NCBI GenBank assembly: GCA_947177975.1
Contig: CAMWWH010000005.1
Span: 1-38,773 of the forward strand
DNA from: an uncultured Clostridia bacterium
GTDB lineage: Bacteria; Bacillota; Clostridia; Christensenellales; Borkfalkiaceae
Length of the DNA: 38,773 nt
Direction of reading: 5' to 3'
The notes below the pieces were generated by a model. The model saw only the letters and a list, made by a program, of their open reading frames with translations. It made no database searches and was not told the DNA's origin. Positions 12,222-38,659 of this stretch are shown in pieces. Each line of letters starts with the position of its first letter. Within the stretch, counting starts at the first letter, position 1. Position numbers and translations under genes: made by a program.

Positions 12222-12226
12222 AGGTT

Positions 12227-12772: not shown

Positions 12773-12778
12773 TATCCA

Positions 12779-13323: not shown

Positions 13324-13344
13324 TTGAAAGGAGATGCGACGAGT

Positions 13345-13620
13345 ATGATGTTAATTAAATTATTCGCCCACAAGAAGGGCGGCGGCTCTACCGATAACGG
13401 CAGAGACAGTAATCCCAAATACCTCGGCGTTAAGCGTGCCGACGGCCAGAAAGTTCTTGCGGGTAATATCCTCGTAAGACAGCGCGGCAGCAAGTTCAAG
13501 CCCGGCAACAACGTAGGCATCGGCAAGGACGACACTCTGTTCGCCCTCATCGACGGCACGGTTAAGTTCGAAAGAGTGGGCAAAGACGGCAAGCAGGTTT
13601 CCGTTTACCCCGTAGCTTAA
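13345..13620 (+). CDS. rpmA: 50S ribosomal protein L27 with cleavable N-terminal extension
   Basis: 91 residues. The core is clear: [15 protein letters not shown] at the N-terminus and [39 protein letters not shown]. Before AHKK there is a short extension ending in KLF, the Firmicutes L27 arrangement in which the Prp protease cuts between Phe and Ala to expose the mature end. Either ATG at 13345 or 13348 could start it; a GAAAGGAG site lies 11-14 nt upstream. In most Firmicutes prp sits between rplU and rpmA; here the gap is only 21 bp. The GTPase gene obg, often next, is also absent. Confidence 0.95.
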
Positions 13621-13630
13621 ATCGGATTAT

Positions 13631-13657
13631 AAAGCGAGAGCAAAATGCTCTCGCTTT
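13631..13657 (+). terminator. Intrinsic terminator after rpmA
   Basis: 12-bp stem AAAGCGAGAGCA/TGCTCTCGCTTT (13631-13642, 13646-13657) with a 3-nt loop and AT-rich tail AATATTTTATT. Confidence 0.8.
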
Positions 13658-13679
13658 AATATTTTATTGAGGTATTTTT

Positions 13680-14156
13680 ATGAAAGTGCGCCCCGTTCAG
13701 TTAAGCGACTACCCCGCATTTAAAAAACTTTTCTGCGACTACTATACCGAGCTCGACTGCGAGGAGGACCCCCTCCCCCTTTTCGACGACTGCCTTTTGC
13801 CCGACTTGAAAGCGGGGCTGTTCGAGGTCGGTATTTGCGAAATCGAAGGCGCGGTTGTCGGCTTTGTCATTTTCCAGATTGACGATATTTTAAACGACTG
13901 GAATTTCAAAGAGGGCTGCGGCGACGTGCGCGAGCTGTACGTTGCTCCCGCCTTCCGCCGCCAAAGTTTGGGCACTGCGCTTTTGCAGTATGCCGAAGCG
14001 GCTCTCATAAAATCGGGCGCAACCGAAATTTATACCCTTCCCGTCGAGGAGTGCGAAAGTTTTTTTATCGCCCGCGGTTATACCGACGGCGGCGAATATT
14101 GCGCCGAAGCCGACAACAAAGTGTTCATCAAAAATATGGACAAATCGGATTTTTAG
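13680..14156 (+). CDS. GNAT family N-acetyltransferase
   Basis: 158 residues, one GNAT domain. The start MKVRPVQLSDYPAFKKLF is the usual beta1-alpha1, the strand-loop VRELYVAPAFRRQSLGTALL carries the acetyl-CoA pyrophosphate-binding R/Q-x-x-G-x-A pattern, and the C-terminal ESFFIARGYT is the typical FY-x-x-x-GF region. It would acetylate an amine from acetyl-CoA; the acceptor is unknown. A TGAGG site precedes the ATG. It lies 23 bp beyond the rpmA terminator; the next gene's promoter is inside its 3' end. Confidence 0.9.
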   Translation: MKVRPVQLSDYPAFKKLFCDYYTELDCEEDPLPLFDDCLLPDLKAGLFEVGICEIEGAVVGFVIFQIDDILNDWNFKEGCGDVRELYVAPAFRRQSLGTALLQYAEAALIKSGATEIYTLPVEECESFFIARGYTDGGEYCAEADNKVFIKNMDKSDF

Positions 14157-23449: not shown

Positions 23450-23450
23450 C

Positions 23451-24833
23451 TTAGTCTTCTCCCTCCGCGTCACTGTTGGTGTTGAGTATATCCGTCATTT
23501 TCAGACTCTCTATACGGGTATATCTGTTCGTGCCGATAAAGTCGCCGGCAGTCTGAACCTCTACGAACGTACAAATAGTATACGTGCCCGGTTTATCGAT
23601 GTAGAAAGTAAGCGTCGAGCTGGTCGTTACCGAATAGATATTGTCGTTATCGTCCTTACCGATAGTCGTGCTGGCGGCAGAGTAATCCGCAGCTACGTAT
23701 TCGCCGTCTTCACCTCTAATGGCAATCGACGAGTAGTTCGTACCGCCCGTAGACCTGCAACCGATAACCAACATACCAACGCCTTCGAAAGTTACGCTTA
23801 AAGTATCGCCCTTTATTTCGAGGCACTGGTTGCTGCCGCTGTTTCTGTACTGCGCTATGCCTCCGCTCAGAAGCGTAAGGAAGCTGTTGTCGTAGTTGTC
23901 ATCACCAACCGTACCGCTGGCAAAATTGCTTTGGCTCAGTACTTGGTTATCCTTTGTGGAGTCAGCCAACGTTGCTTTTATACCGTTGTAACTGTACTGT
24001 TTGAAATTAACGTTGCTGCTGCCGTTGTTGGTGATCTTGTAGGTAACGTTTTCGGATACCGTTACAGGTACGCCCTTGCAGTCCAATTCGGTGTAAGTAA
24101 CCGTTGCCTTCTTACCGTCGGCACCTGTCTCCTCAAACGTAGAGTAATTTCCGATTTCTACGTTCTTGTCTTTATAGTGACCTACCTGTTCGTTGTCTTT
24201 TAAATATACGTCCTTGGTTCTGCCGCTGGAATAAGTTACCTTGAAGTTCCAGGTATCCAGCATTTCGTCGAGACCCAATCCCTGCTCGGTCGTAAAGTTG
24301 CCTACGCGTTCGAAACCTTCAACCTTTTCCACAACGTATACGACAACGAACGACTCGTACACTTCGTCACCGATTTCCGCAGTCGCCCAGATGTTGTACG
24401 CGCCGCCGTCAACCGCCGAAAGATTGTCGAGCTGTACGTCGCCCTTATAATATTCCAATTCATACGAGGATTGTTTCAGCGTGATTTCGGTATTGTCCGC
24501 AGTAATTCCCGTTACACTGATATCGTTAACGGCAATGGCACGGGTCAACTTTGTCAGATCGTAATCCGTTTTCTTCTTGGTAACTTTGATACCCGTCAAT
24601 TCCAAATCGTATTGACAGGTTGTGCAGTGATAATTATCGTCAAACGTGTGCTCGCCTTTCGAACCCTTTACGTCGTCGCCGCACGTAGCCTCGTGCCAAT
24701 GCTCGACGGAATTGGATGTCCATTCACTGGCGAAATCGTGACTGTGACTTTTCTTGCAGCCGACTGCCGCGCCGCACGCAATAGCAGCCGCACTGACAAA
24801 AACCGCCGTAAGTACTAACTTCCACTTCTTCAT
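23451..24833 (-). CDS. Surface lipoprotein cotranscribed with the pectate lyase
   Basis: 460 residues, function not recognised. A lipoprotein signal with candidate lipidated Cys20 or Cys26 is followed by a His/Cys module (about 30-75: SHDF, HWHEATCG, HCTTC) that also occurs in the large lipoprotein at 5.7-9.1 kb. Residues ~80-270 read as two Ig-like/Big domains; ~300-450 look like a carbohydrate-binding-type beta sandwich (SVTFEGVGMLVIGCRS, LTFYIDKPGTYTICTF). Its stop lies one base before the pectate lyase ATG, so translation is coupled. A surface pectin-binding role is inference from position. The ribosome site GGGAGG is unusually far (about 15 nt) from the ATG. Confidence 0.87.
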   Translation of the reverse strand: MKKWKLVLTAVFVSAAAIACGAAVGCKKSHSHDFASEWTSNSVEHWHEATCGDDVKGSKGEHTFDDNYHCTTCQYDLELTGIKVTKKKTDYDLTKLTRAIAVNDISVTGITADNTEITLKQSSYELEYYKGDVQLDNLSAVDGGAYNIWATAEIGDEVYESFVVVYVVEKVEGFERVGNFTTEQGLGLDEMLDTWNFKVTYSSGRTKDVYLKDNEQVGHYKDKNVEIGNYSTFEETGADGKKATVTYTELDCKGVPVTVSENVTYKITNNGSSNVNFKQYSYNGIKATLADSTKDNQVLSQSNFASGTVGDDNYDNSFLTLLSGGIAQYRNSGSNQCLEIKGDTLSVTFEGVGMLVIGCRSTGGTNYSSIAIRGEDGEYVAADYSAASTTIGKDDNDNIYSVTTSSTLTFYIDKPGTYTICTFVEVQTAGDFIGTNRYTRIESLKMTDILNTNSDAEGED

Positions 24834-25148: not shown

Positions 25149-26279
25149 TTATAATTGCTTTATTTCCGTATACGCCATTACGAACGGTCCCGTTCCCTTG
25201 GCGTCGTTTTCCACTACGGGTTCGGATATATAATACTCGTAAGAGCCGTCGCGGCGGCGGTTGGTTTCGGGTCCGAGCCCCGCCACAAGACAGATGCCGC
25301 CCAGATTGAGCTTGCCGTCAGTCGCCTTTAAATACTTATCGCAAATGCCGTTGAATACCTTCTCACCGACCTTTGCAAACCTCTTGTCCACATAGCCCAG
25401 ACGCGCGCCCTTCATCATTGCGTAAGCAATCATTGCCGAGCCGGAAGTTTCGGCGTAGTTGCCTTCCCTTCCTATCTGGTCTACGACCTGCCAGAACATA
25501 TTCGTTTCGGGGTCGATATACTGTTCAAGCCCCTCTATCGTCGTCTTGAATATTTCGCCGAGCACCTTCTTTGCCTCGGTCGCATCTTCGGGTAAATAAG
25601 AAAGAGTGTCTATAAGACCGACCGTGTACCAGCCTACCGAACGTAGCCAGAAGTTTTTGGATAAGCCCGTCTGCTTATCAGCCCAGAACGCCTGCTTGGA
25701 GCAGTCCCAGCCGTGATAATAAAGGCGCTTTTGCTTGTCGTACATATGGTCGAATACGCTCTTGAACTGCTTGACGATTTCGGAAAAATCGCCGTCGCCC
25801 GCTTCGGCAACGTAGCGCGTATAGAATACCTCCGACATATACATGCCGTCAAGCCAGACCTGATGGGGATAAATCGCCTTGTGCCAGAAGTTGCCGTACT
25901 CCGTGCGGGGCTGCTCGACTACCTGACGGTGTAACAGCGCGATAGCCTTTTTATACTTCTCTTTGCCCGTTAACTTGTACAAATCGAAAAGTATTCTGCC
26001 CTCGTTGAGGTTGTCGAGATTGTACGTTTCGAGATTGTAACCCCTTATCGTGCCGTCCTCGTATACGTAGTAATCGACGAATCGGTCGATAAAGTCAAGA
26101 TATTTCTTGTCGCCCGTAAGATTATATATCGAGTAGAGCGACGTCATCATACAGCCGTCGATATAGTTCCAGGCGGGCTGCTTGCCCATCCTTATGTTCT
26201 CGATATTCCATATCGGAGCTTCGGGCTTGGTCTCTTCAATCAGTCTGTCTATGTATTTTTCGATAATTTCGTAATTCAT
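25149..26279 (-). CDS. GH105 unsaturated (rhamno)galacturonyl hydrolase, YteR/YesR-like
   Basis: 376 residues, no signal peptide, so cytoplasmic. The alpha6/alpha6-barrel of GH105 is recognised by HQVWLDGMYMSEVF with catalytic D144 (D143 in YteR), the early AWNYIDGCMM, the WHKAIYPHQVW stretch and the late FWQVVDQIGREGNYAETSGSAM. The enzyme removes the unsaturated uronic acid left at the non-reducing end by pectate or rhamnogalacturonan lyases, so it would act on imported PL9 products. GGAAGG ribosome site before the ATG. It follows the GH28 gene by 14 bp and is the last gene of the importer operon. Confidence 0.95.
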   Translation of the reverse strand: MNYEIIEKYIDRLIEETKPEAPIWNIENIRMGKQPAWNYIDGCMMTSLYSIYNLTGDKKYLDFIDRFVDYYVYEDGTIRGYNLETYNLDNLNEGRILFDLYKLTGKEKYKKAIALLHRQVVEQPRTEYGNFWHKAIYPHQVWLDGMYMSEVFYTRYVAEAGDGDFSEIVKQFKSVFDHMYDKQKRLYYHGWDCSKQAFWADKQTGLSKNFWLRSVGWYTVGLIDTLSYLPEDATEAKKVLGEIFKTTIEGLEQYIDPETNMFWQVVDQIGREGNYAETSGSAMIAYAMMKGARLGYVDKRFAKVGEKVFNGICDKYLKATDGKLNLGGICLVAGLGPETNRRRDGSYEYYISEPVVENDAKGTGPFVMAYTEIKQL

Positions 26280-26293: not shown

Positions 26294-27832
26294 TCAGATA
26301 ACTGTCAGCTTTTTGCAGTTCTTGTTTATTATATTCTCGCCCTCGACGCCGCTGAACGTTACGTTTTTGAGCGTAACTTTTTCTACGTTGTCGATATACA
26401 ATCCCTCTTTGCAGAATTCGCGCACGTGTTCGAGCATTGCGGGCTTGAACGGCTTCGCGTCCTCTTTAAACGAGAAGCTGACGTTTTCCAGCGTTACTTC
26501 CTTTACCGGCTGTTCGACAAGTCCGTCGAAATACGCGCACATACACTCGCACTCGGTGCATTCGATATCCTTGAACAGGAACTTGCCCATATACGGAGTA
26601 TCGTCACCAATAGGGCGCTTTTCCCTCGACCATACGTACTCGGAATGACCGTCGGGGTCGCAGAAATAATACATATTTATAACAAGCGGCGTAATGACGT
26701 TTATCATTTTGATATTTTCGAATACTACGCCGTCGATTATGCAATTCTTACCCCTGCCGCGGCGCGACTTGATACGCAGTCCTCTGTCCGTGTGCTTGAA
26801 TACGCACTGGCAGACGGTCAGATTTTTTACGCCGCCCGAAATTTCACTGCCCAGCACTATCGCGCCGTGACCGTCCTGAAAGAGGTCGTTGCGGATTGTG
26901 TGGTGATTAGCGGGAGTTTTATACTTCGAGCCAAGATACAGCTTGCCCGACTTGAGCGCCACGCAGTCGTCGCCGACCGAGAAAATGCAACCGACGATTT
27001 CAACGTTGTCGCAACTTTCGGGGTCAAGTCCGTCGGTATTGGGACCCGTATACGGATTCTGCACTCTTAAATCGTAAAAGCCGAGGTTCTTCGAGAAGAA
27101 GGGATGCAGGTTCCAGGCAGCCGAATTTTTGCACGTAACGCCGTGGAAAACTACGTTTTCACACTTATTCAACGTGACGAGGCGGGGTCTTGCAACCTCT
27201 CTGCCCTTAGGCGTAGCCCACCAGGTGGACTTGTCCGCGTTGCCGTTGATAGCGCCCTCGCCTACGATTTTAATATTCTTCTTTTTATAAGCCGATACGA
27301 ACGACTGGAAGCAGGGATGGGGATTGCCCTCCCACGTTGCCAAAATTTCCTCGCCGTCCTCGGTTTCGATTTTAGCGGGCACGTAAGGATAATGCTCTTC
27401 GACGATATCGCCCAAAAGCTCGCCGCCCTTCTGAATTTCAATGGTTATGTCCGACGCGAGCACCACGGGGCGCGTATAATAACTGCCCTCGGGAATAATA
27501 ACTCTGCCGCCCTTAGGACAGCTGTCGATTGCCCTCTGGATATAGAAGGTGTCCTCGGTAACGCCGTCGCCCTTTGCGCCGAGCTCTTTAACGTTGACCG
27601 TGCCGCTCTCTCTATCCGTGCGGAATTTGAGAGTAAAGTCGCCCAAAGTTGTACCAACGACGTACTCGGTATCGGGCGTAAGGTTGAAAAGCGAAAATAC
27701 GTTGCTGTCCTTCTGCTCGCCTACCGTGTTGCCGTTAAGCTTGACGCAATACTTTTCGGGCGAATAGTACGGATTTTTATTTTGCAGTTCGAAGCACGCG
27801 GTCGTACTCGAAACAAAAAGTAATTTAAACAT
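26294..27832 (-). CDS. GH28 polygalacturonase, intracellular (exo-type likely)
   Basis: 512 residues, without a signal peptide. An N-terminal fibronectin-III-like domain (about 10-75) precedes the beta-helix, an arrangement known from bacterial exopolygalacturonases. GH28 motifs are complete: NTDGLD (D267, D270), GDDC (D288, D289), GHGAI (H322) and RIK (R353-K355). It would hydrolyse imported oligogalacturonides to galacturonate or digalacturonate in the cytoplasm. The exo assignment is inference from the N-domain and location. The start is fixed by GAGGAG 8 nt upstream and overlaps the previous gene by 8 bp. Confidence 0.95.
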   Translation of the reverse strand: MFKLLFVSSTTACFELQNKNPYYSPEKYCVKLNGNTVGEQKDSNVFSLFNLTPDTEYVVGTTLGDFTLKFRTDRESGTVNVKELGAKGDGVTEDTFYIQRAIDSCPKGGRVIIPEGSYYTRPVVLASDITIEIQKGGELLGDIVEEHYPYVPAKIETEDGEEILATWEGNPHPCFQSFVSAYKKKNIKIVGEGAINGNADKSTWWATPKGREVARPRLVTLNKCENVVFHGVTCKNSAAWNLHPFFSKNLGFYDLRVQNPYTGPNTDGLDPESCDNVEIVGCIFSVGDDCVALKSGKLYLGSKYKTPANHHTIRNDLFQDGHGAIVLGSEISGGVKNLTVCQCVFKHTDRGLRIKSRRGRGKNCIIDGVVFENIKMINVITPLVINMYYFCDPDGHSEYVWSREKRPIGDDTPYMGKFLFKDIECTECECMCAYFDGLVEQPVKEVTLENVSFSFKEDAKPFKPAMLEHVREFCKEGLYIDNVEKVTLKNVTFSGVEGENIINKNCKKLTVI

Positions 27833-28544
27833 TTTCAGTCTCCTCTTTCTTGCGTTTGTTGCGCTTTACCAAATACACAATCAAATCCTTTATTCCGATA
27901 AACGCCATATCCGCAATAGTTGTGAATACGCCGAACAACAGCGGTTCTACGCCAACGTGTATCTTATTTGTTGTTCCCTTTATCAAGCCAATCAGCAAAT
28001 TTAATCCTTCATAGCAATAATATACGGAAATGAGCACGACGACGTAGTAAATTATATTAGTAAAAAACGTCCAGAATTTTTTGAACGGAAACGGAAACAT
28101 CATATATGCGTTATATTCTTTCCTATCCGATTCCATATATCTGAATATTGGATTTACCAGAACATCGACAACAATGCCCATCACAACGCCCGTTATTATG
28201 ACCGTGTCAAGTGCGTCGGCAAACTGTATGCCGAACATTATAAAATAACAAACTGCACCGGCAAACCAAAATTTCACGAATAAAGCTTTCAGCCAGGTCG
28301 GAACACGCGAAAGCTTGTCTACCTTATAAGGGTCGAATTCTTTAGCCGCCTTTTTTTCGGACAGTTCCTGTTCGGTTACGCCTTCCTTTCCTATACAGTC
28401 TTCAACTTTATAGGAAACGGGCTCCTGACTTTCAACGTCCTCACCTTTAAGCGCGGCAACAAGCTCGTCAACCTTATCGACTTTCAGGTCGTAGTAGTTT
28501 TCGATTGTCGTCTCCCTGCTTTTTTCCTTCTTCTTTTTTGACAT
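27825..28544 (-). CDS. Uncharacterised membrane protein of the pectin importer operon (A)
   Basis: 239 residues, family not recognised. A long charged cytoplasmic N-terminus (about 1-80, starting MSKKKKEK) is followed by hydrophobic segments near WLKALFVKFWFAGAVCYFIMFG, TVIITGVVMGIVVDVLV, IIYYVVVLISVYYCYEGL and PLLFGVFTTIADMAFIG, and ends in a Lys/Arg-rich tail. Four membrane passes are likely. The ATG at 28544 follows AAGGACC; the frame continues to 28571 but without a better start. It overlaps the GH28 start by 8 bp. A hairpin terminator lies just upstream, so it may head a less-expressed distal part of the operon. Confidence 0.8.
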   Translation of the reverse strand: MSKKKKEKSRETTIENYYDLKVDKVDELVAALKGEDVESQEPVSYKVEDCIGKEGVTEQELSEKKAAKEFDPYKVDKLSRVPTWLKALFVKFWFAGAVCYFIMFGIQFADALDTVIITGVVMGIVVDVLVNPIFRYMESDRKEYNAYMMFPFPFKKFWTFFTNIIYYVVVLISVYYCYEGLNLLIGLIKGTTNKIHVGVEPLLFGVFTTIADMAFIGIKDLIVYLVKRNKRKKEETENV

Positions 28545-28556
28545 ACCGGTCCTTTT

Positions 28557-28588
28557 AAAAATAACCGACAAAAAACTTTTGTCGGTTA
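28557..28588 (-). terminator. Intra-operon terminator/attenuator before the enzyme genes
   Basis: 12-bp stem TAACCGACAAAA/TTTTGTCGGTTA (28562-28573, 28577-28588) with a 3-nt loop, followed on the minus strand by TTTTT and then the ribosome site of the next gene. It lies in a 68-bp gap inside an otherwise tightly packed operon, so it probably lowers rather than abolishes downstream transcription. Confidence 0.7.
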
Positions 28589-28612
28589 CTTTTTAAAACT
28601 GCAAATTCAGAT

Positions 28613-29377
28613 TTAATCTTCCACGTCAATCACTTCTTTGATTTCAGTAGACTCGACTACTTTTCGTGTGTTAATCTTATTAATCAACTTCTTATACAGC
28701 GGCAACGTCGCAAGAAGCAATGCATCTATGCCAACAAGCACTATATGCGCGATAGCCAATGTAAGCGACTGCTCCATATAAGGATGCATAGCGAAGTCAT
28801 TAGGTAAATATCCCGCACCGCCGTCTGCCTGAGAGGCGTGAAGATATTTATCCATTTCGACGTAATATAATACGTCGCAGGTTATCAGTATAGCCATAAA
28901 CACGAACAGCAACACTATAAACACAATGTTAGCTTTTTTGCGTTTGGGGAATGCACTACCGAACAGCGCGATTATAAGTACCGATACCAACGTATTCACG
29001 AATACGACCAATCCGCACCATTCAACCGCATTATTTTTATCGATATTACGCGAAAAAGTGAACAGCCAGATTAACCAAAGAGCAGTCGTAACAAATAATG
29101 CAAACAATACGATGGACTGAGGACTCCTCTTGAGCGCGACTATCCTTTTACGGAACCATTCCTTAACGGCAGCCAATACCTTTTTACCAACCGAAGGCTT
29201 TTGCTCTTCAACCGAATTTCCCTGTTCTTCGACGGTGACGGCTTCATTCTGCTCTTCGGCAGGTTTTACCTGTTCCTCGACGACAGCTTCGTTCTGCTCT
29301 TCGGCTTTAACGACTTCCGTCTGATTCTCGTTATCGGCTGCTTCGGGTTCTACCGAAACGTTCTCGATATCTGCCAT
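28613..29377 (-). CDS. Uncharacterised membrane protein of the pectin importer operon (B)
   Basis: 254 residues, family not recognised. The first ~65 residues are a Glu/Gln/Val-rich low-complexity segment with repeats of EEQNEAV and EEQ, surely cytoplasmic and disordered. Then come four hydrophobic helices (about 88-108, 120-142, 150-170, 208-230) joined by short basic loops, with an outward loop around HASQADGGAGYLPND. Ends in a charged tail. It lies 10 bp after the ATPase gene stop. The acidic tail could bind the basic loops of neighbouring subunits; that is a guess. Confidence 0.8.
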   Translation of the reverse strand: MADIENVSVEPEAADNENQTEVVKAEEQNEAVVEEQVKPAEEQNEAVTVEEQGNSVEEQKPSVGKKVLAAVKEWFRKRIVALKRSPQSIVLFALFVTTALWLIWLFTFSRNIDKNNAVEWCGLVVFVNTLVSVLIIALFGSAFPKRKKANIVFIVLLFVFMAILITCDVLYYVEMDKYLHASQADGGAGYLPNDFAMHPYMEQSLTLAIAHIVLVGIDALLLATLPLYKKLINKINTRKVVESTEIKEVIDVED

Positions 29378-29387
29378 AACTCCCTCC

Positions 29388-30497
29388 TTATACTATCTTC
29401 TTGCCGTATTCAACAACAGTCTCTTCGCCCTTTTCGTTTACCGATGTTACGGGCTTTTCGAAGAAGTGCATCTTTTCGGCATCGAAACCGAGTTTAATTT
29501 CGTCGCCGTATTTGTAATTGCACCATTCGGCAAATTTGCAAACGACAATCTTCTTATTGCCGATCTTTCCGTGAACCAACGTATTCATACCGAGATTTTC
29601 GTTGTTCGTCACAACGAAAGGCACGCTTCCGTTACGCTCAATATTTTCGGGTCTTACGCCGAGTACGACTTCCTTACCCTCGTAATCTTTAAGCGTGTCC
29701 TGCTGTGCGGCAGACAAGGGATAATCAAACAATTCACTCTTGAAATGTCCGCCCTCGACAACGCCGTTGAACATATTCATAGGAGGAAGTCCGATGAACG
29801 TCGCAACGAAAGTATTTGCAGGGTTCTCGTACAAATCGATAGGTTTACCGATTTGCTGAACGTGACCCATAGACATACATACGATTCTGTCTGCAAGCGT
29901 AAGCGCCTCGGTCTGGTCGTGAGTTACGTACATCATCGTAGCATTCAGCTTTTTATGAAGCAGTATAAGTTCACGTCTCATCGAACCACGGAGCTTTGCG
30001 TCGAGGTTGGATAAAGGTTCGTCAAAAAGGAACAGCTTGGGGTTACGAACGATAGCACGTCCGATAGCGACACGCTGGCGCTGACCGCCGGAAAGCTGCT
30101 TGGGCTTTTTGTTGAGCTGAGTTTTCAAGTCGAGAATCTCAGCCGCAGCCATAACCTTTCTGTGAATAACCTCTTTGTTTTCTTTACGAAGCGTAAGCGA
30201 GAACGCCATGTTTTCGTAAATAGTCATATGTCCGTACAGAGCGTAGTTCTGGAAAACCATCGCTATATCTCTGTCCTTGGGCGGGAGACGCGTACAATCC
30301 TTACCGTCGATAATAAGCTCGCCCTTGGTGATGTCTTCAAGACCCGCGACCATTCTGAGCGTCGTGGACTTGCCGCAACCGGAAGGTCCTACCAAAACGA
30401 TGAACTCACCGTCTGCGATGTCAAGATTGAAATCCCAAACAGCCTGAACGCCACCGTCGTAAATTTTATCCAAATGTCTGATGTTAACTTCGGGCAT
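29388..30497 (-). CDS. Multi-sugar ABC importer ATPase (MsmK/UgpC/MalK type)
   Basis: 369 residues. Walker A GPSGCGKST (37-45), Q-loop MVFQNYALYGHMT (80-92), signature LSGGQRQR (135-142), Walker B LFLFDEP (155-161), H-switch THDQTEA. The C-terminal ~130 residues are the TOBE/OB regulatory domain of CUT1 sugar ATPases (GVRPENI). It should drive the LplB/YtcP-type permeases of the same operon; many Clostridia keep only one such ATPase at a distance, so a dedicated copy here is notable. Start overlaps the previous stop as TAATG, giving translational coupling. Confidence 0.96.
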   Translation of the reverse strand: MPEVNIRHLDKIYDGGVQAVWDFNLDIADGEFIVLVGPSGCGKSTTLRMVAGLEDITKGELIIDGKDCTRLPPKDRDIAMVFQNYALYGHMTIYENMAFSLTLRKENKEVIHRKVMAAAEILDLKTQLNKKPKQLSGGQRQRVAIGRAIVRNPKLFLFDEPLSNLDAKLRGSMRRELILLHKKLNATMMYVTHDQTEALTLADRIVCMSMGHVQQIGKPIDLYENPANTFVATFIGLPPMNMFNGVVEGGHFKSELFDYPLSAAQQDTLKDYEGKEVVLGVRPENIERNGSVPFVVTNNENLGMNTLVHGKIGNKKIVVCKFAEWCNYKYGDEIKLGFDAEKMHFFEKPVTSVNEKGEETVVEYGKKIV

Positions 30498-31129
30498 TAT
30501 TGAACCTCCTTCGCCTCGGGCTGAGCTTCAACCTGCTTGTTTGCAGCGTTTGCCTCGTCAGCCGCATCAAGCTCGGCAAGTACTTTGTCCATATCAACTT
30601 CGCCGGATTCAACGGCTTTTACGTGCTTTTCAAGCTGAACGCAGCGCAAATAGCTCAATACCGCCGAAGCTACAAAGCAAGCTGCCGAAGCTACAAGATA
30701 GACTAATAAGAAAGTAAATTCTGTTTCGTTTACTCCCTTAGTCGTAGGCTCTAAACCGAAATAGTTTACGTTAAGTATTTTTTCCTTTAAGCCGTAGAGC
30801 GGCAACCAGAAGATTTTACCGATTTGAACAGCGGCAAGTACCAGTAAAACTATACAGAACTTTTTGTTGTAGCCCTTCACGCCTTCCGACGAAAGGAAAC
30901 TTACTAACAGAATAATCAGAGTTAAAATAACCGATATGCCTATATCGATAGAACAGAATTTCGTATACGACAAGCCGTCGCTTTCCAGCGCCGCCTTTAT
31001 TCCGTATATCAACATAAAGTAAAGGCATTCGAATACCAAACCGAGCAACGCAAGGTTCGCGCCCAGTTTGTTCTTTTTATAACGGTCAAGGTCGGCTCTT
31101 ACAAGCTTGTTAGACGTAGCTTTTTTCAT
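30497..31129 (-). CDS. Uncharacterised membrane protein of the pectin importer operon (C)
   Basis: 210 residues, family not recognised. N-terminus basic (MKKATSNKLVRADLDRYKKN), then four hydrophobic segments near LGANLALLGLVFECLYFMLI, IGISVILTLIILLVSFL, FCIVLLVLAAVQIGKIFW and FLLVYLVASAACFVASAVL, then a ~50-residue acidic Ala/Glu tail (DKVLAELDAADEANAAN). The ATG at 31129 has GGGAGG at 9 nt and comes one base after the stop of the preceding gene. Size and layout mirror its upstream neighbour, so the two may form a heterodimer. Confidence 0.8.
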   Translation of the reverse strand: MKKATSNKLVRADLDRYKKNKLGANLALLGLVFECLYFMLIYGIKAALESDGLSYTKFCSIDIGISVILTLIILLVSFLSSEGVKGYNKKFCIVLLVLAAVQIGKIFWLPLYGLKEKILNVNYFGLEPTTKGVNETEFTFLLVYLVASAACFVASAVLSYLRCVQLEKHVKAVESGEVDMDKVLAELDAADEANAANKQVEAQPEAKEVQ

Positions 31130-31130
31130 A

Positions 31131-31742
31131 TCACGCAACCTCCCCAACTAACCCTGAAGCGAGAAGTTCTTTTTCTCCCTTCATGAGCTTTATTTTCCAG
31201 ATTAAATTTAAAGTCCATGCGGCTGCGTTTGCCAAAACAAGCAAGAAAACCACTATCCCGAGTATAAACATTGCGGGAGACTTGGAAACGTCCTTGTAAG
31301 GCTGCTTACCGTCGGTAGCTTTAAGAGCATCGATAAGGGATGTTAAAGCATTCCAGTCCAAGCCGTAGAACTTTGCCATTAAAATTGCGATAAAGATTAT
31401 TCCGAATATCGCAACGATAACGCTCATAGCTATATTCAAGCCTATTGCAACGTAATTTGTTATGTAGTAATTACGGCGCTTATTCGATGCCGTTATAAAC
31501 AGAATTGCTACAATGCAGATATAAACTATTGCCATAATTACGAGCGCAGAAACAAAAGTCTGTGCGGGGTCGCAGAAGCTGTCGGAACCGCCGTACTCAT
31601 ATCTCATACTCTCCCAATTGTTATAGAACATTATATCAGACAAATTACCCGAATTGAATATCAGCGCATAAACGAAAACCAACGCCGCAATAATCAGCGA
31701 AACGAGCGCTAATATCTTTTGAAATTTGATTTGAGTTTTCAT
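31131..31742 (-). CDS. Uncharacterised membrane protein of the pectin importer operon (D)
   Basis: 203 residues, family not recognised. Four hydrophobic segments: about 8-30 (ILALVSLIIAALVFVYALIF), 63-85, 97-125 and 155-180, with an outward loop between helices one and two containing two Cys-free acidic stretches apart from one FCDP. Ends in a basic segment and a short tail. It is the first gene after the binding-protein gene, beyond a hairpin, and is coupled to membrane protein C by a one-base junction. Confidence 0.8.
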   Translation of the reverse strand: MKTQIKFQKILALVSLIIAALVFVYALIFNSGNLSDIMFYNNWESMRYEYGGSDSFCDPAQTFVSALVIMAIVYICIVAILFITASNKRRNYYITNYVAIGLNIAMSVIVAIFGIIFIAILMAKFYGLDWNALTSLIDALKATDGKQPYKDVSKSPAMFILGIVVFLLVLANAAAWTLNLIWKIKLMKGEKELLASGLVGEVA

Positions 31743-31762
31743 TTCTATTCCCCAAAAATTTT

Positions 31763-31794
31763 GTTACCTGCCCGCCCTTTGACGGGCAGGTAAC
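31763..31794 (-). terminator. Intra-operon terminator after the solute-binding protein gene
   Basis: 12-bp stem GTTACCTGCCCG/CGGGCAGGTAAC (31763-31774, 31783-31794) with an 8-nt loop, then AAAATTTTT on the minus strand. A second small hairpin CGCAGAT/ATCTGCG lies at 31819-31834. Such hairpins commonly keep the binding-protein message more abundant than the rest. Confidence 0.72.
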
Positions 31795-31852
31795 CTTTAA
31801 TTAGTTGAAACAATTCTCCGCAGATAAATCTGCGTTAAAGCATACGCTTAAA

Positions 31853-34708
31853 TTAGTCTAACTCGTAACCGAGGTTGTACTGCTTGTTTATAGCGTACCA
31901 GCCGTTCTCCATGATACCGACTCTGTTCTGGAAGTTACTGCTATTAATAAGAGTAACGATTTTTGCGCCGGTGTTATAGGTCTTATAGTTGCCGAGGGAC
32001 TCCTGACCGCAAACGTTTGCAGACGAGCCGAGACCGTAGTAAAGGATATCGATTAAGATATTGGTGGTCTGGTTGGTCTTGGAGTTGTTGTAGAAGTACG
32101 TACCAGAAATCTTCGTCTGGTTGGAATCCTTCAGAATCTGCTGTTCGTTCGCCGTCATAGGAAGCGCCGTGGGAGTAATGAGATACCAAGGGCTCTCGTT
32201 TTCGTCAAGCGTAAGCTTAACGTGCTTTAACGTACCGTTGAGCAACGCCTTGGTTACGGTAGCAGCACCGTTAATGCCGGCAGTTGCGGTAGCCTGATAC
32301 TCGAAGCCCTGATTCTTATTACCGATAGGCAACGTAGAACCGATGACGTAACGCGCATAGTTGGTGTAGTTATCTTTCGCACTGATAAGGATGTTATTGC
32401 CAGTACCGCCGCCGGTCTTGATGGAAACTGTAACAGGCACTTCTTGACCTTGTTGATTAGTGGTATAGCCGGTTATAACTTCAGTACTATTGCCATGATA
32501 GAAAGATGCATTCAAATCGGTAAGAACGGGAATCTGAGTACCGTTATATGCCAAACCTGTATAAACTTTTTCGTTATAGATGAAGTACTGACCCTTGTAT
32601 TCCTTCTTTACCGAATACTGTGCAGGCGCATAATTGGTTGCATCGGCAAGCTTAACGCCCACTTCGGCAGGAGTTTTATCGGTAACTTCATTCGCATACC
32701 ACCAGCCGTCGGCATCCTCGGTGTTGCCCTTTACGGACTGAGGTCCGTAGGACATAAGCAACTGACCGTCGGTCGAGAAGAAGTAGTCGATGAATGCAAG
32801 TACCGCGGAAAGCTTATCGGTATTACCCGTAATCGACTTGGGTACGCAGAAGCCGGTATTCTTAACCGAACGCCAGCTTTCGGTGAATCTCATAATGTCG
32901 GTGTGGTCGCCGTCGCCGTCGACGTCCCACTTGGAAACAGCGTTTACAATGGGTCCGAAGTTATACTTCGTATCGGCCAAACCCATACCTTTCAAAGTCT
33001 GAGTCTGAACGTAGTCGTGAAGCATAAACGTCTGTACGCCCGAATTGTCCGTCGCAATGGTGGTCGCCGAATAAGTAACGGTAGAAAGCAAGTTACCTTG
33101 TGTATCAGCCTGCAACTTACCATCCTCATCGTAATAGCCGTCTTTTTCAACGCCGTCTTCAGTCTTAGTCTTTAACACATAACCGTACTCGCCACCTTCG
33201 GATTTGGGCTTGGTCAAAACATCTATTTCTACCTTAGTATATTTCGCAGTCATATCGTTAGTACCGATATAGACGAGACCTTCCTTGGTAAGAGAGTTGA
33301 AGTTGTTGAGGATGTCATAGGTGCTTGCATCCCCACGCGCGTCCTGAATCTGACCGTTTGCATCGAAGTAGGTGTATTCGTAACGGGACTCGAGACCGCG
33401 GACGCCGTAAAGCTCGCCTGCGAGAGCCATAAGGTCTACACGCCTCTGGGTAGTCTGCTGACGACCTGCAATTGCGAAAACGTCTTCAACGTCAGACTTG
33501 CTGTTACTGAGAGCGGTCGCGCTGCAAACAACGCAACGGGACATCGCAACCAAAAGGTCAACGTCCCAGCCTGCGGATGCAGAAAGGAACACGTCGGAAA
33601 GCTTGGTGTAGAACTGAGCGCCCGCTTCGGTCTGATATGCAACCTTAATGTATTCCTGAAGAACCTTTGCAAGCTTTCCGCCGGATACTTCACCCTGCGT
33701 AGTATTAATTATAAAGTTCTGTATATCAACGATGTTGCCGCTTGTGCTGTCGGCGGGATAAGCCGTGCCGCCCGTCGCGTCGGAAATAGCCGTAGCAAGA
33801 GCAGACGTGCCGGTAGCCGCTTCTAACGCCGCTCCGTAGTTAACTTTAAGCTTAACGGTACCGATTACGCCGTTAGCGTCGGCAGTTCCGTTAGGGTCGG
33901 TCGTGTCTACCGTGTAAGAACCGTCAGTTCCCATATAAGCCGTTGCGGAAGATGCGTTAGATACGATAGCGCCGTAGTCAGCCTTAGCCTTCTTAGCATC
34001 TGCCTGTTCCTTGAACGTGCCGGTGTACGTAGCTAACTTGGTATCGTTGCCGTCGAGGATTTCCTTTACCCAGTTATGGTTAACCATCGAATATTTTTCA
34101 ATATCGTCGTTGCCGTCGAAGTAAGGAGCAGCATACATACCGCCCTTATAGTCGCCGGTAAGCGAGTACTTAGTTACGGGGTTCGCATCGAGGAACGCCT
34201 TGTAATTAGGCATATATTCGAGATAGTCCGTAAGGTTGAGGAATGAACCGGAGTTTTTGTTGATTTCTTCCAAAGAACCCGTGATTACGTCGTAATCGGA
34301 AAGGTTATTGTTCTTTATGGGAGTTGAAACCTGATCGCCCGAACCGAGGTTCTGGAACGAATCGTTAAGTTTTAAAGCAGAGGTCGTGCTGAGCTGAGTC
34401 TGTAAAGCTGCCCATGCAGGTTTTAAAGCGCCTGCGCCATACTGCTTGCCGTCGGGCATATAAGTATTACCGGAAAGATCGGACGAAGTGTAAGAAATGC
34501 CCTGCTGCTTCGTGTTCGAGTTACCTACGTTCAGATTTAACTGAGTATTCGCAGCCCAGGTAAGCTTGCCGCTTTCGTCCAACTTGGGCTTAACGACGCT
34601 GTCGCCGCCGTTATCTCCGCCGCCGCCGCAACCGAACATACCGAACGCCATTGTTCCTGCCATTACTACGGCAACCGCAGCGCTGGCAATTTTGAGTTTC
34701 TTGTTCAT
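31853..34708 (-). CDS. Very large ABC sugar-importer solute-binding lipoprotein
   Basis: 951 residues. Lipobox MFGC with Cys27 and a glycine-rich linker. The chain has the family-1 extracellular binding-protein style (YDVITGSLEEINKNSGSFLNLTDYLEY early; FTESWRSVKNTGFCVPKSITGNTDKLSAVLAFIDYFFSTDGQLLMSYGPQ later). The usual length of LplA/LipO-type proteins is about 450-560, so extra material, probably around residues 230-430 and 700-900, nearly doubles it. Ligand is inferred from context to be oligogalacturonides. AAGGAG ribosome site; a promoter-like sequence lies directly upstream. Third to fourth in the operon after the two permeases. Confidence 0.9.
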   Translation of the reverse strand: MNKKLKIASAAVAVVMAGTMAFGMFGCGGGGDNGGDSVVKPKLDESGKLTWAANTQLNLNVGNSNTKQQGISYTSSDLSGNTYMPDGKQYGAGALKPAWAALQTQLSTTSALKLNDSFQNLGSGDQVSTPIKNNNLSDYDVITGSLEEINKNSGSFLNLTDYLEYMPNYKAFLDANPVTKYSLTGDYKGGMYAAPYFDGNDDIEKYSMVNHNWVKEILDGNDTKLATYTGTFKEQADAKKAKADYGAIVSNASSATAYMGTDGSYTVDTTDPNGTADANGVIGTVKLKVNYGAALEAATGTSALATAISDATGGTAYPADSTSGNIVDIQNFIINTTQGEVSGGKLAKVLQEYIKVAYQTEAGAQFYTKLSDVFLSASAGWDVDLLVAMSRCVVCSATALSNSKSDVEDVFAIAGRQQTTQRRVDLMALAGELYGVRGLESRYEYTYFDANGQIQDARGDASTYDILNNFNSLTKEGLVYIGTNDMTAKYTKVEIDVLTKPKSEGGEYGYVLKTKTEDGVEKDGYYDEDGKLQADTQGNLLSTVTYSATTIATDNSGVQTFMLHDYVQTQTLKGMGLADTKYNFGPIVNAVSKWDVDGDGDHTDIMRFTESWRSVKNTGFCVPKSITGNTDKLSAVLAFIDYFFSTDGQLLMSYGPQSVKGNTEDADGWWYANEVTDKTPAEVGVKLADATNYAPAQYSVKKEYKGQYFIYNEKVYTGLAYNGTQIPVLTDLNASFYHGNSTEVITGYTTNQQGQEVPVTVSIKTGGGTGNNILISAKDNYTNYARYVIGSTLPIGNKNQGFEYQATATAGINGAATVTKALLNGTLKHVKLTLDENESPWYLITPTALPMTANEQQILKDSNQTKISGTYFYNNSKTNQTTNILIDILYYGLGSSANVCGQESLGNYKTYNTGAKIVTLINSSNFQNRVGIMENGWYAINKQYNLGYELD

Positions 34709-34772: not shown

Positions 34773-35720
34773 TTATTCCTTTACGCCGCCCATATTTACG
34801 CCCTTGGCGAAATACTTCTGAATGAAAGGATATATGCACAAAATAGGAATAACCGCGCAGATAACCATTGCATACACAACGGAAAGAGCCGACAAATCTT
34901 TGGTACTGTAACCGCCGCGGATAACCTCTTCCCACGACGCATATTCCTCGTGAGGTTTGACAAGCTCGGAAGATTTATCGATAAAGTCTCGGATATAAAC
35001 CTGTACAGGCCACGAGTAATTCTGCTGTTTCATCATTCTCATTGCCCAGAAATAGCCGTTCCAACGCGAAATCGCAAAGAACAGTGCAACCGTAGCAATA
35101 GTAGCTTTACTCATAGGAATGTAAACTTTCCAAAGAATCTGCATTTCCGTAGCGCCGTCGATTCTTGCAGCCTCCTCTATCTCAGCGGGAACGCCCTCGA
35201 AAGAGTTTCTTAACAGAATTACGTTGGTCGCGTTCATACCCATCGCAATGATAACCAGCCACTTTTCGTCGATTTCCGTCCAGGGCTTGCCTGCGATTGC
35301 AGCCATTATGTTACCGGTAGTCTGATAGTTTAAGAACTGAGGAACGATACCTGCGGAGAACCACATCGTGAATACGAGGAAGAAGTTCCAAGCATGTCTG
35401 CCCATCAAACGCTTCTTGGAGAGCGCGTATGCGCCCATAAGCGTATAAACCATACACCAGATGGTACCCACGACCGCCATAAACAACGTGTTGGCGTAGC
35501 TTATCCAGTATTTGTTGTCAGTGAAAACGTATTTGTAAGCTATACTTTGGAATTCGACCGGTATAATAACCACCTTGCCGCTTTCAACCGCGTTTGCCGA
35601 GCTGAACGAACAGCTAAGCGCATATATGAAGGGATACACGCACAACAACGCGAAAACTATCAAAAATACGTACGCAACAATTTTGAATATCAGTTCCGAT
35701 ACTTCTATTTTTCTTTTCAT
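34773..35720 (-). CDS. CUT1 sugar ABC transporter permease (YtcP/AraQ type)
   Basis: 315 residues with six hydrophobic helices, the first near FKIVAYVFLIVFALLCVYPFI. The EAA loop that docks the ATPase is EAARIDGA. The ending KYFAKGVNMGGVKE is characteristic of the YtcP/LplC permeases of oligosaccharide importers. Pairs with the LplB-type permease upstream (15-bp gap) to form the membrane channel. Confidence 0.95.
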   Translation of the reverse strand: MKRKIEVSELIFKIVAYVFLIVFALLCVYPFIYALSCSFSSANAVESGKVVIIPVEFQSIAYKYVFTDNKYWISYANTLFMAVVGTIWCMVYTLMGAYALSKKRLMGRHAWNFFLVFTMWFSAGIVPQFLNYQTTGNIMAAIAGKPWTEIDEKWLVIIAMGMNATNVILLRNSFEGVPAEIEEAARIDGATEMQILWKVYIPMSKATIATVALFFAISRWNGYFWAMRMMKQQNYSWPVQVYIRDFIDKSSELVKPHEEYASWEEVIRGGYSTKDLSALSVVYAMVICAVIPILCIYPFIQKYFAKGVNMGGVKE

Positions 35721-35735: not shown

Positions 35736-36791
35736 TTAGTACAGCGATACGCCGCTTGCCTTCTTGGCAACAGTGTTTGCGCCTATAACCAGAATCATAC
35801 CGATCAGGTTATTGACCATTTCCGCCGCTATGCCGAGTGCCGTACTACCACCCGACTCGCTCCAACGGTTGGAAAGTGTCGCAACTATATCCGCCGACTC
35901 GTAGTTGGAAGTGTTGGACATAAGATATACCTTTTCATATCCGACCGACAACAGCGTGCCGACTTTCATTATAAGCATTATTACGACTGTGGATAAAATC
36001 GAAGGAATTACGACGTAACGCATCTGTTGCATCTTGCTTGCGCCGTCTATCTGCGCCGCCTCGTAAGACGTGGGAGAAACCGCAATTACCGCCGCGAAGA
36101 ACACTATTGAGTCGTAGCCGCCGTGCTCCCAGATGCCGACAATCTGATAAATCGCTCTGAAATATCTGTCCGAGAACACCAAGCCGTAAGGAGACGTAGC
36201 TGCATCGTGCAACGCACCGGAGGGCGATATCGCCATCAACAGCTTAGATACTATACCCGTTCCCATTGTACCGCCGCGGAAAAGAACGATCGTCAACGCG
36301 GTGATAATAACGGTGGACATGAACTTAGGCAGGTACACACATACCTGCATAATGCTTCTTGCTATGTTGGACTTTACTTCGTTAAAGAAAAGCGCCAGAA
36401 TTATAGGGAACGGGAAGCCGAACAATAATCCGTAGAACGCGATTATGAACGTGTTCCTGAACGCACGCCAGAACTCGTTTGCCTGACCTCCGAAGAATAA
36501 CTCTTTAAAGTTCGTCAGACCGTACCATACCTGATCTTCTACCTTGGTCGCACTTGCAGGGTTCTTAAAAGCCGCAAGCAACTGGTACATCGGCAAATAA
36601 CGCCAAAGCAAATATACCACTACCATGGGAACAAGCATTAAATACAAACGCCAGTCCTTTAAGATGGTAATTCCGGTGGTCTTCCAGTGGTTCCTCTCTG
36701 TTTCGTCCCTTACTTTCTGCTCCTGCGACATGCTGTATGTGCCTGTCGCTTCGTCATATTCAAGGAAATCGTCACATTTGAGCTTGAACAT
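35736..36791 (-). CDS. CUT1 sugar ABC transporter permease (LplB type)
   Basis: 351 residues. A soluble N-terminus of ~45 residues precedes six membrane helices, with LYLMLVPMVVVYLLWRYLPM as the first, typical of LplB. EAA loop is EAAQIDGA. The C-terminal GIAAEMVNNLIGMILVIGAN and last basic residues match the family. The ATG at 36791 has GGGAGGG 7 nt upstream; the open frame continues to 36812 but that GTG/ATG region contains the ribosome site. Confidence 0.95.
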   Translation of the reverse strand: MFKLKCDDFLEYDEATGTYSMSQEQKVRDETERNHWKTTGITILKDWRLYLMLVPMVVVYLLWRYLPMYQLLAAFKNPASATKVEDQVWYGLTNFKELFFGGQANEFWRAFRNTFIIAFYGLLFGFPFPIILALFFNEVKSNIARSIMQVCVYLPKFMSTVIITALTIVLFRGGTMGTGIVSKLLMAISPSGALHDAATSPYGLVFSDRYFRAIYQIVGIWEHGGYDSIVFFAAVIAVSPTSYEAAQIDGASKMQQMRYVVIPSILSTVVIMLIMKVGTLLSVGYEKVYLMSNTSNYESADIVATLSNRWSESGGSTALGIAAEMVNNLIGMILVIGANTVAKKASGVSLY

Positions 36792-36833
36792 TGTTTTCCC
36801 TCCCAATATCATTAAATATATATGAGTATATTT

Positions 36834-37532
36834 TTAATCGTATAAATCGTTTTCGCGGTTTAAAATACTCAGCGATTCCTCGTCGATTTCCACGGGTTCG
36901 TCGCCGAACGCATCCCGACGCATTCTGTCGCGGCGCTCTTTATCAATCCGCTTTAAATAGCTCTTCTGGTCTTCGAACATTCCGTCCAGCCGCCGCAGAA
37001 CCAAAATCACCACTACCGACATTACCAGCGACAGCATATCGGCTATTGCAAACCCCGCAAAGCCCGACCACGCGGTCAAACCGCTTATCGGAGAAATAGC
37101 GTATGTAATCGCAAAGACTACCGACCTGCCGAGATAGATACTCAGCCAACCGCCGATGGCGAACAGCGCCGAGCTCCACCACCGAGCCCTTATCTTATCC
37201 TTGCCTATAAATTTTATCGGGATAAGCATGAGCGCTATAAACGCATTTCCTATAATATATGTTGCATACTGCAAGCCAGACGCCGAACCGGACAACACAC
37301 AGCTCAACAGTCCGCAACACGCTGAGTAGATTATGCCTTGCCAGCCCCACCTCATCATTACCGTCAGTACTATCGGTACGAGCAACGAGAAAGTGTACGT
37401 CGCCGCGGAAGGAAACCATTTCCCCGCATAAAACGTAAGTATTTCGGCTACCGCTAATATCAATGCGAAAACGAATAAGTCCGTCGTCCTATATTGATTA
37501 ACAGATATCAGTCTTGAACCGTTTTTTCGCAT
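36834..37532 (-). CDS. Six-helix membrane protein, first gene of the importer operon
   Basis: 232 residues, not firmly recognised. Five to six hydrophobic segments begin at about residue 18 (DLFVFALILAVAEILTFYAG), with conserved-looking MRWGWQGIIYSACCGLLS and a final helix around ADMLSLVMSVVVILVLRRL, then a ~50-residue charged C-terminus (KERRDRMRRDAFGDEPVEID). The spacing of helices recalls ECF-transporter S components or the membrane proteins of unknown function seen before sugar-permease genes, but no binding signature is evident. First gene after the operon promoter, 42 bp before the LplB-type gene. Confidence 0.75.
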   Translation of the reverse strand: MRKNGSRLISVNQYRTTDLFVFALILAVAEILTFYAGKWFPSAATYTFSLLVPIVLTVMMRWGWQGIIYSACCGLLSCVLSGSASGLQYATYIIGNAFIALMLIPIKFIGKDKIRARWWSSALFAIGGWLSIYLGRSVVFAITYAISPISGLTAWSGFAGFAIADMLSLVMSVVVILVLRRLDGMFEDQKSYLKRIDKERRDRMRRDAFGDEPVEIDEESLSILNRENDLYD

Positions 37533-37594: not shown

Positions 37595-37623
37595 ATTATA
37601 ACACGCACAAATTTAAAAATCAA
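37595..37623 (-). promoter_or_regulatory. Promoter for the pectin importer operon
   Basis: Minus strand TTGATT (37618-37623), 17-bp spacer, TATAAT (37595-37600). Confidence 0.75.
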
Positions 37624-37690: not shown

Positions 37691-38659
37691 ATGGATATTC
37701 TGAACGTCGCGCCGAATGACAATTTGACCGATATCTTGTCAAAAATTACTCAACCGACCACAATATATCTTAAAAAAGGCGTTTATCACACCAAACTCGT
37801 CATTGCCGCCGACGACGTCACTCTGATTGGCGAAGACCGTGAAACAACGGTTATCGCCTACGACGATTACGCAAGAAAACCCCACTGCGACGGCAGAGAG
37901 TACAACACTTTCCGCACTTTCACCGTGTGTGTAACGGGTGAAAGAGTCGTGATAGACAACCTTACGATAGCCAACACAAACACCTCGCCCGAAACTCAGG
38001 GACAGTGCGTCGCTCTGTCGGTAAACGCAAAGACGTTCCGCGCGAAAAACTGCGATTTAAAGTCCACGCAGGATACCCTTTTCACCGCTCCATTCCCCGA
38101 CGACCTCGTTATAAGATATTCGGGACTGACCGACGACCCCACATATTACGACGGATTTATTCCGCGCGAGCAGTTATATATGGAGGGCGGGGCTTTCCAT
38201 TATTTCGAAAACTGCCGCGTTTACGGCACGGTCGATTTCGTGTTCGGCGGTGCGGCGGCTTTATTCGAAAACTGCGAGTTTATTTCGCTTAAAGAAAAGC
38301 GCGGTATCGGATTTGTCGCAGCCCCCTGCCATTCGCTCAGACAAGAGCTCGGGTATCTGTTTTACAAGTGCAAATTCGCAAACGGCGGCGCAGACAACGG
38401 CAGCGTGTACCTTGCAAGACCTTGGCGCGATTTCGGCAAGTGTGTATTTTTAGACTGCTCGTTAGACAGCCATATTTCGCCCCTGCTCTTCGACAAGTGG
38501 AACGACACCTACCGCGACAAAACGGCGAGGTTTTCATTCTGCAACTTGAAGGGCGGAAATCTTGCTCCCGTGACTTGGGCGCGCGAAATCACTACCGAAC
38601 GCGCAAATGAAATTATAAATGGTTTTACGGCACTGAAAAAGAAGTATTTTGACAAATAA
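37691..38659 (+). CDS. Pectin methylesterase (CE8), intracellular
   Basis: 322 residues, no signal peptide. CE8 motifs are complete: STQDTLF with Q127 and acid/base D128, GTVDFVFG with nucleophile D182, and LARPWRDFGK with R243 stabilising the intermediate. It removes methyl esters from galacturonate residues, giving methanol and free acid. A ~25-residue insertion after QDTLF is larger than in secreted plant-type enzymes and includes the YYDGFIPREQLYMEGGAFHYF loop. Being cytoplasmic, it should act on imported methylated oligogalacturonides, before GH28 and GH105. Divergent from, and probably co-regulated with, the importer operon. Confidence 0.96.
   Translation: MDILNVAPNDNLTDILSKITQPTTIYLKKGVYHTKLVIAADDVTLIGEDRETTVIAYDDYARKPHCDGREYNTFRTFTVCVTGERVVIDNLTIANTNTSPETQGQCVALSVNAKTFRAKNCDLKSTQDTLFTAPFPDDLVIRYSGLTDDPTYYDGFIPREQLYMEGGAFHYFENCRVYGTVDFVFGGAAALFENCEFISLKEKRGIGFVAAPCHSLRQELGYLFYKCKFANGGADNGSVYLARPWRDFGKCVFLDCSLDSHISPLLFDKWNDTYRDKTARFSFCNLKGGNLAPVTWAREITTERANEIINGFTALKKKYFDK

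What the first reader, a model, noticed from the sequence alone, without database searches (positions are those of the whole stretch)
27825..31742. Four uncharacterised membrane proteins built into a complete CUT1 oligogalacturonide importer operon
Between the binding protein and the GH28/GH105 genes there are four small proteins (A-D), each with about four membrane passes and long charged, low-complexity cytoplasmic tails, and a fifth six-helix one heads the operon. They are interleaved with the ATPase and translationally coupled (TAATG, one-base junctions). A standard CUT1 importer needs only a binding protein, two permeases and an ATPase. The sequence suggests an enlarged importer or a membrane complex linking uptake to intracellular processing.
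Basis: partly seen in the sequence, partly recalled or inferred. Interest (0 to 1): 0.72.

Follow-up and report, generated by a model that had tools for sequence, protein, structure and literature searches.

The report
Nine-gene pectin-sugar importer with extra subunits
Some Clostridia carry a sugar importer of a known type whose genes are mixed, nearly always in one fixed order, with five membrane protein families that match nothing known, so this pump may need more parts than the textbook version.

Summary
In detail: A-D are four 4-helix membrane proteins interleaved with the importer's ATPase gene; E (about six helices) heads the operon. None of the window's five matches a known family above its cut-off. 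The neighbourhood test is positive: a cassette, E-permease-permease-binding protein-D-C-ATPase-B-A, is complete in one order in 68 of 80 named Clostridia loci (the best 80 of 276, picked by D); 11 are contig-end pieces and one looks chimeric. It also occurs without adjacent GH28/GH105. In 200 genomes the cassette-type permease occurs ten times, in ten A-positive genomes; other permeases score far lower. The core is an AlgM1/AlgM2-type importer with an enlarged AlgQ-like binding protein. Cassette permeases and ATPases branch apart from others; the ATPase has Gly for Pro at residue 89 in 87 of 90. Two conserved hairpins split the operon. Best reading: A-E are accessory subunits of a uronate-oligosaccharide importer. 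Physical contact is untested; structure prediction failed. A link to intracellular processing has less support.

The parts
36834..37532 (-). E: about six-helix membrane protein (232 aa), first gene of the operon; no known family
35736..36812 (-). AlgM1/LplB-type permease with about 35-40 N-terminal residues that do not align with AlgM1 (start more likely the ATG at 36791)
34773..35720 (-). AlgM2/YtcP-type permease
31853..34708 (-). enlarged AlgQ-like substrate-binding lipoprotein (951 aa; Cys27 invariant in 32 aligned)
31763..31794 (-). GC-rich hairpin between SBP and D; conserved in position, with compensatory changes in relatives
31131..31742 (-). D: four-helix membrane protein with RRxYYxxNY in the cytoplasmic loop, its named residues invariant in 74 aligned
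30497..31129 (-). C: four-helix membrane protein
29388..30497 (-). cassette ATPase (MsmX/UgpC/AlgS type) with Gly at position 89
28613..29377 (-). B: four-helix membrane protein, KEWxRKxxVxLKR before TM1, KINT after TM4, variable acidic N-tail
28562..28588 (.). hairpin (palindrome) between B and A; conserved in position
27825..28544 (-). A: four-helix membrane protein with a long charged N-tail bearing a conserved motif
26294..27832 (-). GH28 polygalacturonase-type enzyme; no signal peptide apparent by eye
25149..26279 (-). GH88/GH105 unsaturated uronyl hydrolase-type enzyme; no signal peptide apparent by eye
37691..38659 (+). divergent pectinesterase; no signal peptide apparent by eye
37595..37623 (-). 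promoter-like site upstream of E (10 of 12, TG before the second hexamer); such sites are about as frequent in shuffles (23 found, mean 19.4)

Best explanation
The operon encodes an ABC importer of the AlgM1-AlgM2/LplB-YtcP branch of CUT1, for uronic-acid oligosaccharides (here most likely oligogalacturonides), whose working unit includes extra membrane subunits A-E. Shown: the nine genes form one conserved cassette; A follows this permease clade in the genomes sampled; cassette permeases and ATPases branch apart from the others. Inferred: A-D sit beside the permease pair with basic cytoplasmic loops facing the ATPase and the extended permease N-terminus; they let the pump accept a bulky lipoprotein carrying a long polyanionic chain, and stabilise or gate the pathway; E, missing in the most divergent version, may be a later addition. 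The SBP/D and B/A hairpins probably make the binding protein more abundant than D-A. Imported chains are then cut in the cytoplasm by GH28 and GH105.
For: 68 of 80 named loci (picked by D) have all nine genes in the same order on one strand; 11 others are contig-end pieces. In 25 of 25 loci from another A search (three already among the 15) an MsmX-type ATPase, B and A stand in that order. The ten cassette-type permeases (437-620 bits) lie in ten A-positive genomes; the next best scores 284, although 107 of 200 genomes hold some match. Cassette permeases and ATPases each fall on one side of a branch, SH-aLRT 100. Genome G032 holds two cassettes, each with A-E, one without GH28/GH105. Permeases match AlgM1 at 1.5e-84 and AlgM2 at 2.1e-74; the SBP profile matches AlgQ2 at 5e-10. 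The ATPase has Gly89 in 87 of 90, Pro in 20 of 20 others. Stems exceed shuffles at SBP/D and B/A, not at E/LplB or YtcP/SBP.
Against: No physical interaction was tested and no fold is known. Gene order alone is compatible with assembly, sensing or an unrelated co-expressed membrane complex. The cassette ATPase keeps three of four residues linked to multitask ATPases (D77 90/90, R104 88/90, K154 90/90), which argues against strict dedication. L160 lacks E. The permease N-terminal stretch is only partly present in the three most divergent cassettes, and some other permeases have long N-termini too. Weak partial D-like hits occur without the cassette (L177, L178, L179), probably chance. Substrate is inferred from neighbours only.
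Confidence: 0.6

Rival explanations
1. A-E are assembly, insertion or quality-control factors for the permeases or the large lipoprotein (a YesL/DUF624-like role), needed to build the importer but not part of the finished pump.
For: Same co-conservation; hairpins before D and before A suggest lower expression than the binding protein; DUF624 proteins are recalled to sit beside CUT1 permeases.
Against: Five families for assembly alone would be unusual (inference). No profile similarity of A-E to 21 DUF624 proteins was seen, but the control also failed (7%), so that test says nothing.
Confidence: 0.2
2. A-E form a regulatory or sensing module that reads transport activity or substrate and controls the pump or the cytoplasmic enzymes through their charged tails.
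For: Conserved motifs in the A N-tail, D loop and B termini; ATPase change near the Q-loop (the Q-loop assignment is recalled).
Against: No Pfam domain over its cut-off in the window's A-E; tails are short or missing in L160, which keeps A, C and D.
Confidence: 0.12
3. A-E are an independent membrane complex that merely shares the operon.
For: No direct contact data exist.
Against: The ATPase gene lies inside the set; the order is kept; ten of ten cassette-type permeases lie in A-positive genomes.
Confidence: 0.05
4. E is an ECF-type S component giving the importer a second substrate-binding membrane subunit.
For: Length and helix count.
Against: Profile comparison with 25 ECF S-component proteins: probability 0.4%, while two parts of that set find each other at 99.6%. 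None of 69 E proteins matches any Pfam family at E 0.001.
Confidence: 0.03

Closest known systems
AlgM1M2SS-AlgQ1/AlgQ2 alginate importer of Sphingomonas sp. A1 (PDB 4TQU)
   Same: Both permeases, the ATPase and the binding protein are homologous; its substrate is an acidic polysaccharide (PMC8286568 and PMC9314435, passages seen).
   Different: Described there as AlgM1, AlgM2, AlgS and the binding proteins; here five further membrane proteins, a binding protein of 677-977 aa in 68 complete loci against solved AlgQ chains of 490-516 residues, and an N-terminal permease stretch absent from AlgM1.
YtcQP-YteP and YesOPQ with MsmX in Bacillus subtilis
   Different: MsmX is shared among several importers there; here an ATPase gene of a separate branch lies inside the set, together with A-E.
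YesL/YteU (DUF624) membrane proteins
   Same: Recalled as small uncharacterised membrane proteins beside CUT1 genes.
   Different: No PF04854 match in this genome; relationship by profile could not be tested, the control failed.

Membership tests
CUT1 / AlgM1M2SS-type ABC importer (core) | two BPD_transp_1 permeases homologous to AlgM1/AlgM2 | tested here: met
CUT1 / AlgM1M2SS-type ABC importer (core) | MalK/MsmX-type ATPase with regulatory OB/TOBE domain | tested here: met
CUT1 / AlgM1M2SS-type ABC importer (core) | lipoprotein binding protein homologous to AlgQ | tested here: met
   whole-sequence 5e-10, made of two stretches each near 1e-3; Cys27 invariant in 32; no Pfam match
CUT1 / AlgM1M2SS-type ABC importer (core) | transport of an acidic oligo- or polysaccharide | not testable with these tools
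   inferred from GH28, GH105 and pectinesterase neighbours
Multitask ATPase (MsmX) | residues D77, R104, E110, K154 (PMC7658222, passages) | tested here: inconclusive
   of 90 cassette ATPases 90 D, 88 R, 90 K; position 110 is V in 59 and I in 23
DUF624 / YesL | match to PF04854 or profile similarity | tested here: inconclusive
   no PF04854 match in own genome; profile control failed
ECF S component | profile similarity of E to PF12822 proteins | tested here: not met
   0.4% against a control of 99.6%
Any Pfam family for A-E | match above the curated cut-off | tested here: not met
   nothing over cut-off for the five window proteins; 348 aligned members at E 0.001, none for A and E, scattered matches in one or two members per family for B, C, D, cut-offs mostly not shown

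The most novel reading that the evidence does not exclude
A nine-component ABC importer: five extra membrane families, about 22 added helices, are structural subunits that widen or guard the pathway so that Gram-positive Clostridia can pull long polygalacturonate chains whole through the membrane, a counterpart of the Sphingomonas alginate importer with a subunit make-up that I know from no other ABC importer.
Probability: 0.35. Interest if true: 0.85.

Novelty: new variant of a known kind. Interest (0 to 1): 0.62.

Why it matters
Type I ABC importers are described as two permease domains, two ATPases and a binding protein (PMC7658222, abstract). If further membrane families are obligatory, the part list of one branch of these pumps in Clostridia is incomplete, and five unnamed families get a testable role. 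It would also bear on how pectin enters Gram-positive bacteria and on whether long chains can be imported whole.

Tried and rejected
E as an ECF S component: no support at profile level. Common origin of A-D: profile comparisons give at most 29% (B with D) and 18-22% for B-D, C-D and B-C with deeper alignments; similar layout, no proof of homology. DUF624 origin: untestable, control failed. Solved relatives of A-E by sequence: nothing below E 0.2. RNA families: none at gathering scores in the window, none at E 0.5 in 28500-32000. Viral contigs, query A: 39 pattern matches, none confirmed. A in 299 genomes of the phylum: only the window's own, so the cassette is sparse there. D in the class: 8 of 391 genomes, 4 strong and 4 weak and partial. 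Literature: eight searches ran; none of the listed titles and abstract starts describes these five proteins; listings were capped and the library lacks most subscription papers. Co-variation between proteins was not tried: too few sequences.
Full report
What is there. The window is contig C5 of a 1.47 Mb draft genome, 80% complete. On the minus strand an operon runs E - AlgM1/LplB-type permease - AlgM2/YtcP-type permease - binding protein - D - C - ATPase - B - A - GH28 - GH105, with a pectinesterase diverging from its head. A KDPG aldolase lies at 9425-10039. The draft genome has eight BPD_transp_1 matches; two are this pair and the other six were not identified further; the cassette permease profile finds one match in it.

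The five extra proteins. The window's A-E have no Pfam match above cut-off and no NCBIfam match above cut-off. Scanning the members of larger alignments (69 E, 74 D, 65 A, 68 B, 72 C) gave at E 0.001 nothing for A and E and only scattered matches, one or two members per family, for B, C and D. Averaged hydropathy gives four helices for A-D and about six for E. The loop between helices 2 and 3 of A-D is net basic, the outer loops net acidic; for D the net charges along the chain are +2.0, -1.8, +2.9, -2.8, +0.5. B's two tails and the C-tails of C and E are net acidic, so the orientation rests on the loops. Conserved cytoplasmic features are RRxYYxxNY in D, KEWxRKxxVxLKR and KINT in B, and E.TIENYYDLK..VDELV in A. 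Profile comparisons do not show that A-D share an origin.

Neighbourhoods. A was found in 15 of 121 family genomes, 25 of 396 order genomes, 26 of 150 genomes of one other family with a divergent query and 1 of 299 phylum genomes; D in 8 of 391 class genomes, 4 of them only weakly. Eighteen regions were taken around A; with a second near-identical copy on one contig and a fragment left out, each of A-E was found in all 16, the window's own among them (A is cut by the contig end in L029). A named-genome scan for D found 276 loci, of which the best 80 were kept; some are the same places as G-handle regions (for example L101 = L032, L103 = L033), so the sets are not independent. Of these 80, 68 have all nine genes in one order on one strand; 11 are contiguous pieces at contig ends; L044 has D, C and an ATPase whose second half departs from the cassette type, which I take as an assembly join. 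Records named Coproplasma, Christensenella, Lachnospiraceae and Oscillospiraceae are among the 80. Of 15 order-level A loci, 13 are complete, one is a contig fragment and L160 is an eight-gene version. In 25 of 25 loci (the query's own place left out; three already among the 15) an MsmX-type ATPase, B and A stand in that order. Weak D-like places that I looked at (L177, L178, L179) have no cassette.

Tied to one permease clade. A profile of the cassette permease found matches in 107 of 200 order genomes. Ten places score 437-620 bits and all ten lie in genomes positive for A; the next best is 284 bits. G053, of the same genus, has neither A nor a permease match. In trees the cassette permeases (29 rows against 20) and cassette ATPases (26 rows against 15, from 26 chosen loci) each form one side of a branch with SH-aLRT 100; the trees are unrooted quick searches and L160 is a long branch in both. 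Cassette ATPases share 76% identity with each other and 49% with the others. At residue 89, six residues past the glutamine that I recall as the Q-loop, 87 of 90 cassette ATPases have Gly and 20 of 20 others Pro; the five solved relatives shown have Pro too. The exceptions are L161, L162 and L163. The permease carries about 35-40 residues before the part that aligns with AlgM1; this stretch is only partly present in the three most divergent cassettes, and some other permeases have long N-termini that do not align with it.

What it imports. The permeases match AlgM1 and AlgM2 at 1.5e-84 and 2.1e-74; the binding-protein profile matches AlgQ2 at 5e-10 in two stretches; the ATPase matches MsmX and AlgS. 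GH28 or GH105 lies in 67 of 80 loci and in 64 of the 68 complete ones. L160 instead lies near a heparinase II/III-like gene and, judged by eye, an SDR and a cupin, which hints at another uronate polysaccharide. L030, L032 and L163 have no GH28 or GH105 hit; ten of their neighbours scanned were not pectin enzymes by Pfam. L030 has two binding-protein genes. So uronate oligosaccharides are the likely cargo, by inference only.

Expression. The gaps SBP/D and B/A are not coupled. A stem of nine pairs or more occurs in 91% of 75 and 93% of 59 gaps, median stems 12 and 15 against shuffled means of 7.7 and 7.8; the control gaps YtcP/SBP (62) and E/LplB (49) have such a stem in 45% each, median 8 against 7.4 and 7.9 (gaps of 35-250 bases only). 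In 19 chosen sequences the SBP/D stem has compensatory changes at 7 of 11 pairs. Few carry a strong T run (12% and 7%), so they may be mRNA-processing or attenuation sites rather than full terminators. This suggests, but does not show, that the binding protein is made in excess over D-A.

Mechanism and limits. The evidence shows tight linkage and purifying selection, with Ka/Ks 0.03-0.28 for A-E where computable in 8 of 14 close pairs, many with saturated Ks. It does not show contact. E as an S component is unsupported, with a working control; the DUF624 test had no working control. The multitask residues D77, R104 and K154 are kept in the cassette ATPase (PMC7658222, passages), which counts against strict dedication. 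Pathway widening, contact with the permease N-terminus and delivery of long chains are inference.

Against print. Eight paper searches listed no account of these proteins in the titles and abstract starts shown. I saw passages of PMC5730181, PMC11466899, PMC9314435, PMC8286568, PMC6344614 and PMC7658222, not whole texts. PMC5730181 ties MsmX and YtcQP-YteP, and probably YesOPQ, to polygalacturonan and rhamnogalacturonan use; PMC9314435 and PMC8286568 describe import of alginate as a polysaccharide by AlgM1M2SS.

Verdict. A real, strongly conserved nine-gene importer cassette with five unnamed membrane families: a new variant of a known kind.

Noticed in passing
L072 and L085, gene E: E is 35% identical between these two loci while the other eight proteins are 74-94% identical, as if E had been swapped within the cassette.
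   Followed up: no
L030:5157-7565 and L034 (both genome G032): One genome holds two cassettes; in one of them a second binding-protein gene stands where GH28 usually follows A.
   Followed up: partly
L027 and L028 (G116 contig C1; also L061 and L063): Two near-identical copies of the cassette lie about 20 kb apart on one contig; real duplication or assembly error was not settled.
   Followed up: no
L160:1746-8842 and 10703-13795: Most divergent cassette: no E, short tails on A-D, near a heparinase II/III-like gene and, by eye, an SDR and a cupin; hints at a different uronate polysaccharide.
   Followed up: partly
L163:4855-5931, L107, L108, L109, L111, L113, L115 and others: A second MsmX-like ATPase of another branch often lies close to the cassette; of 20 such ATPases none has D77 or R104 and one has K154, residues which the cassette ATPase keeps.
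   Followed up: partly
window 19625-24833: A large exported protein (1282 aa) and a lipoprotein (460 aa), with relatives beside the same enzymes in L022, L031 and L033; the larger has only a sub-threshold aBig_2 match.
   Followed up: no
window 28562-28588: In the six relatives printed the B/A hairpin keeps its sequence (about AACCGRCAAAA...TTTTGTCGGTTA) more than the SBP/D hairpin does; it might be a protein-binding palindrome.
   Followed up: no
L044:1760-2942: ATPase whose first part is cassette type and whose rest departs from it; probably an assembly join inside a conserved gene.
   Followed up: partly
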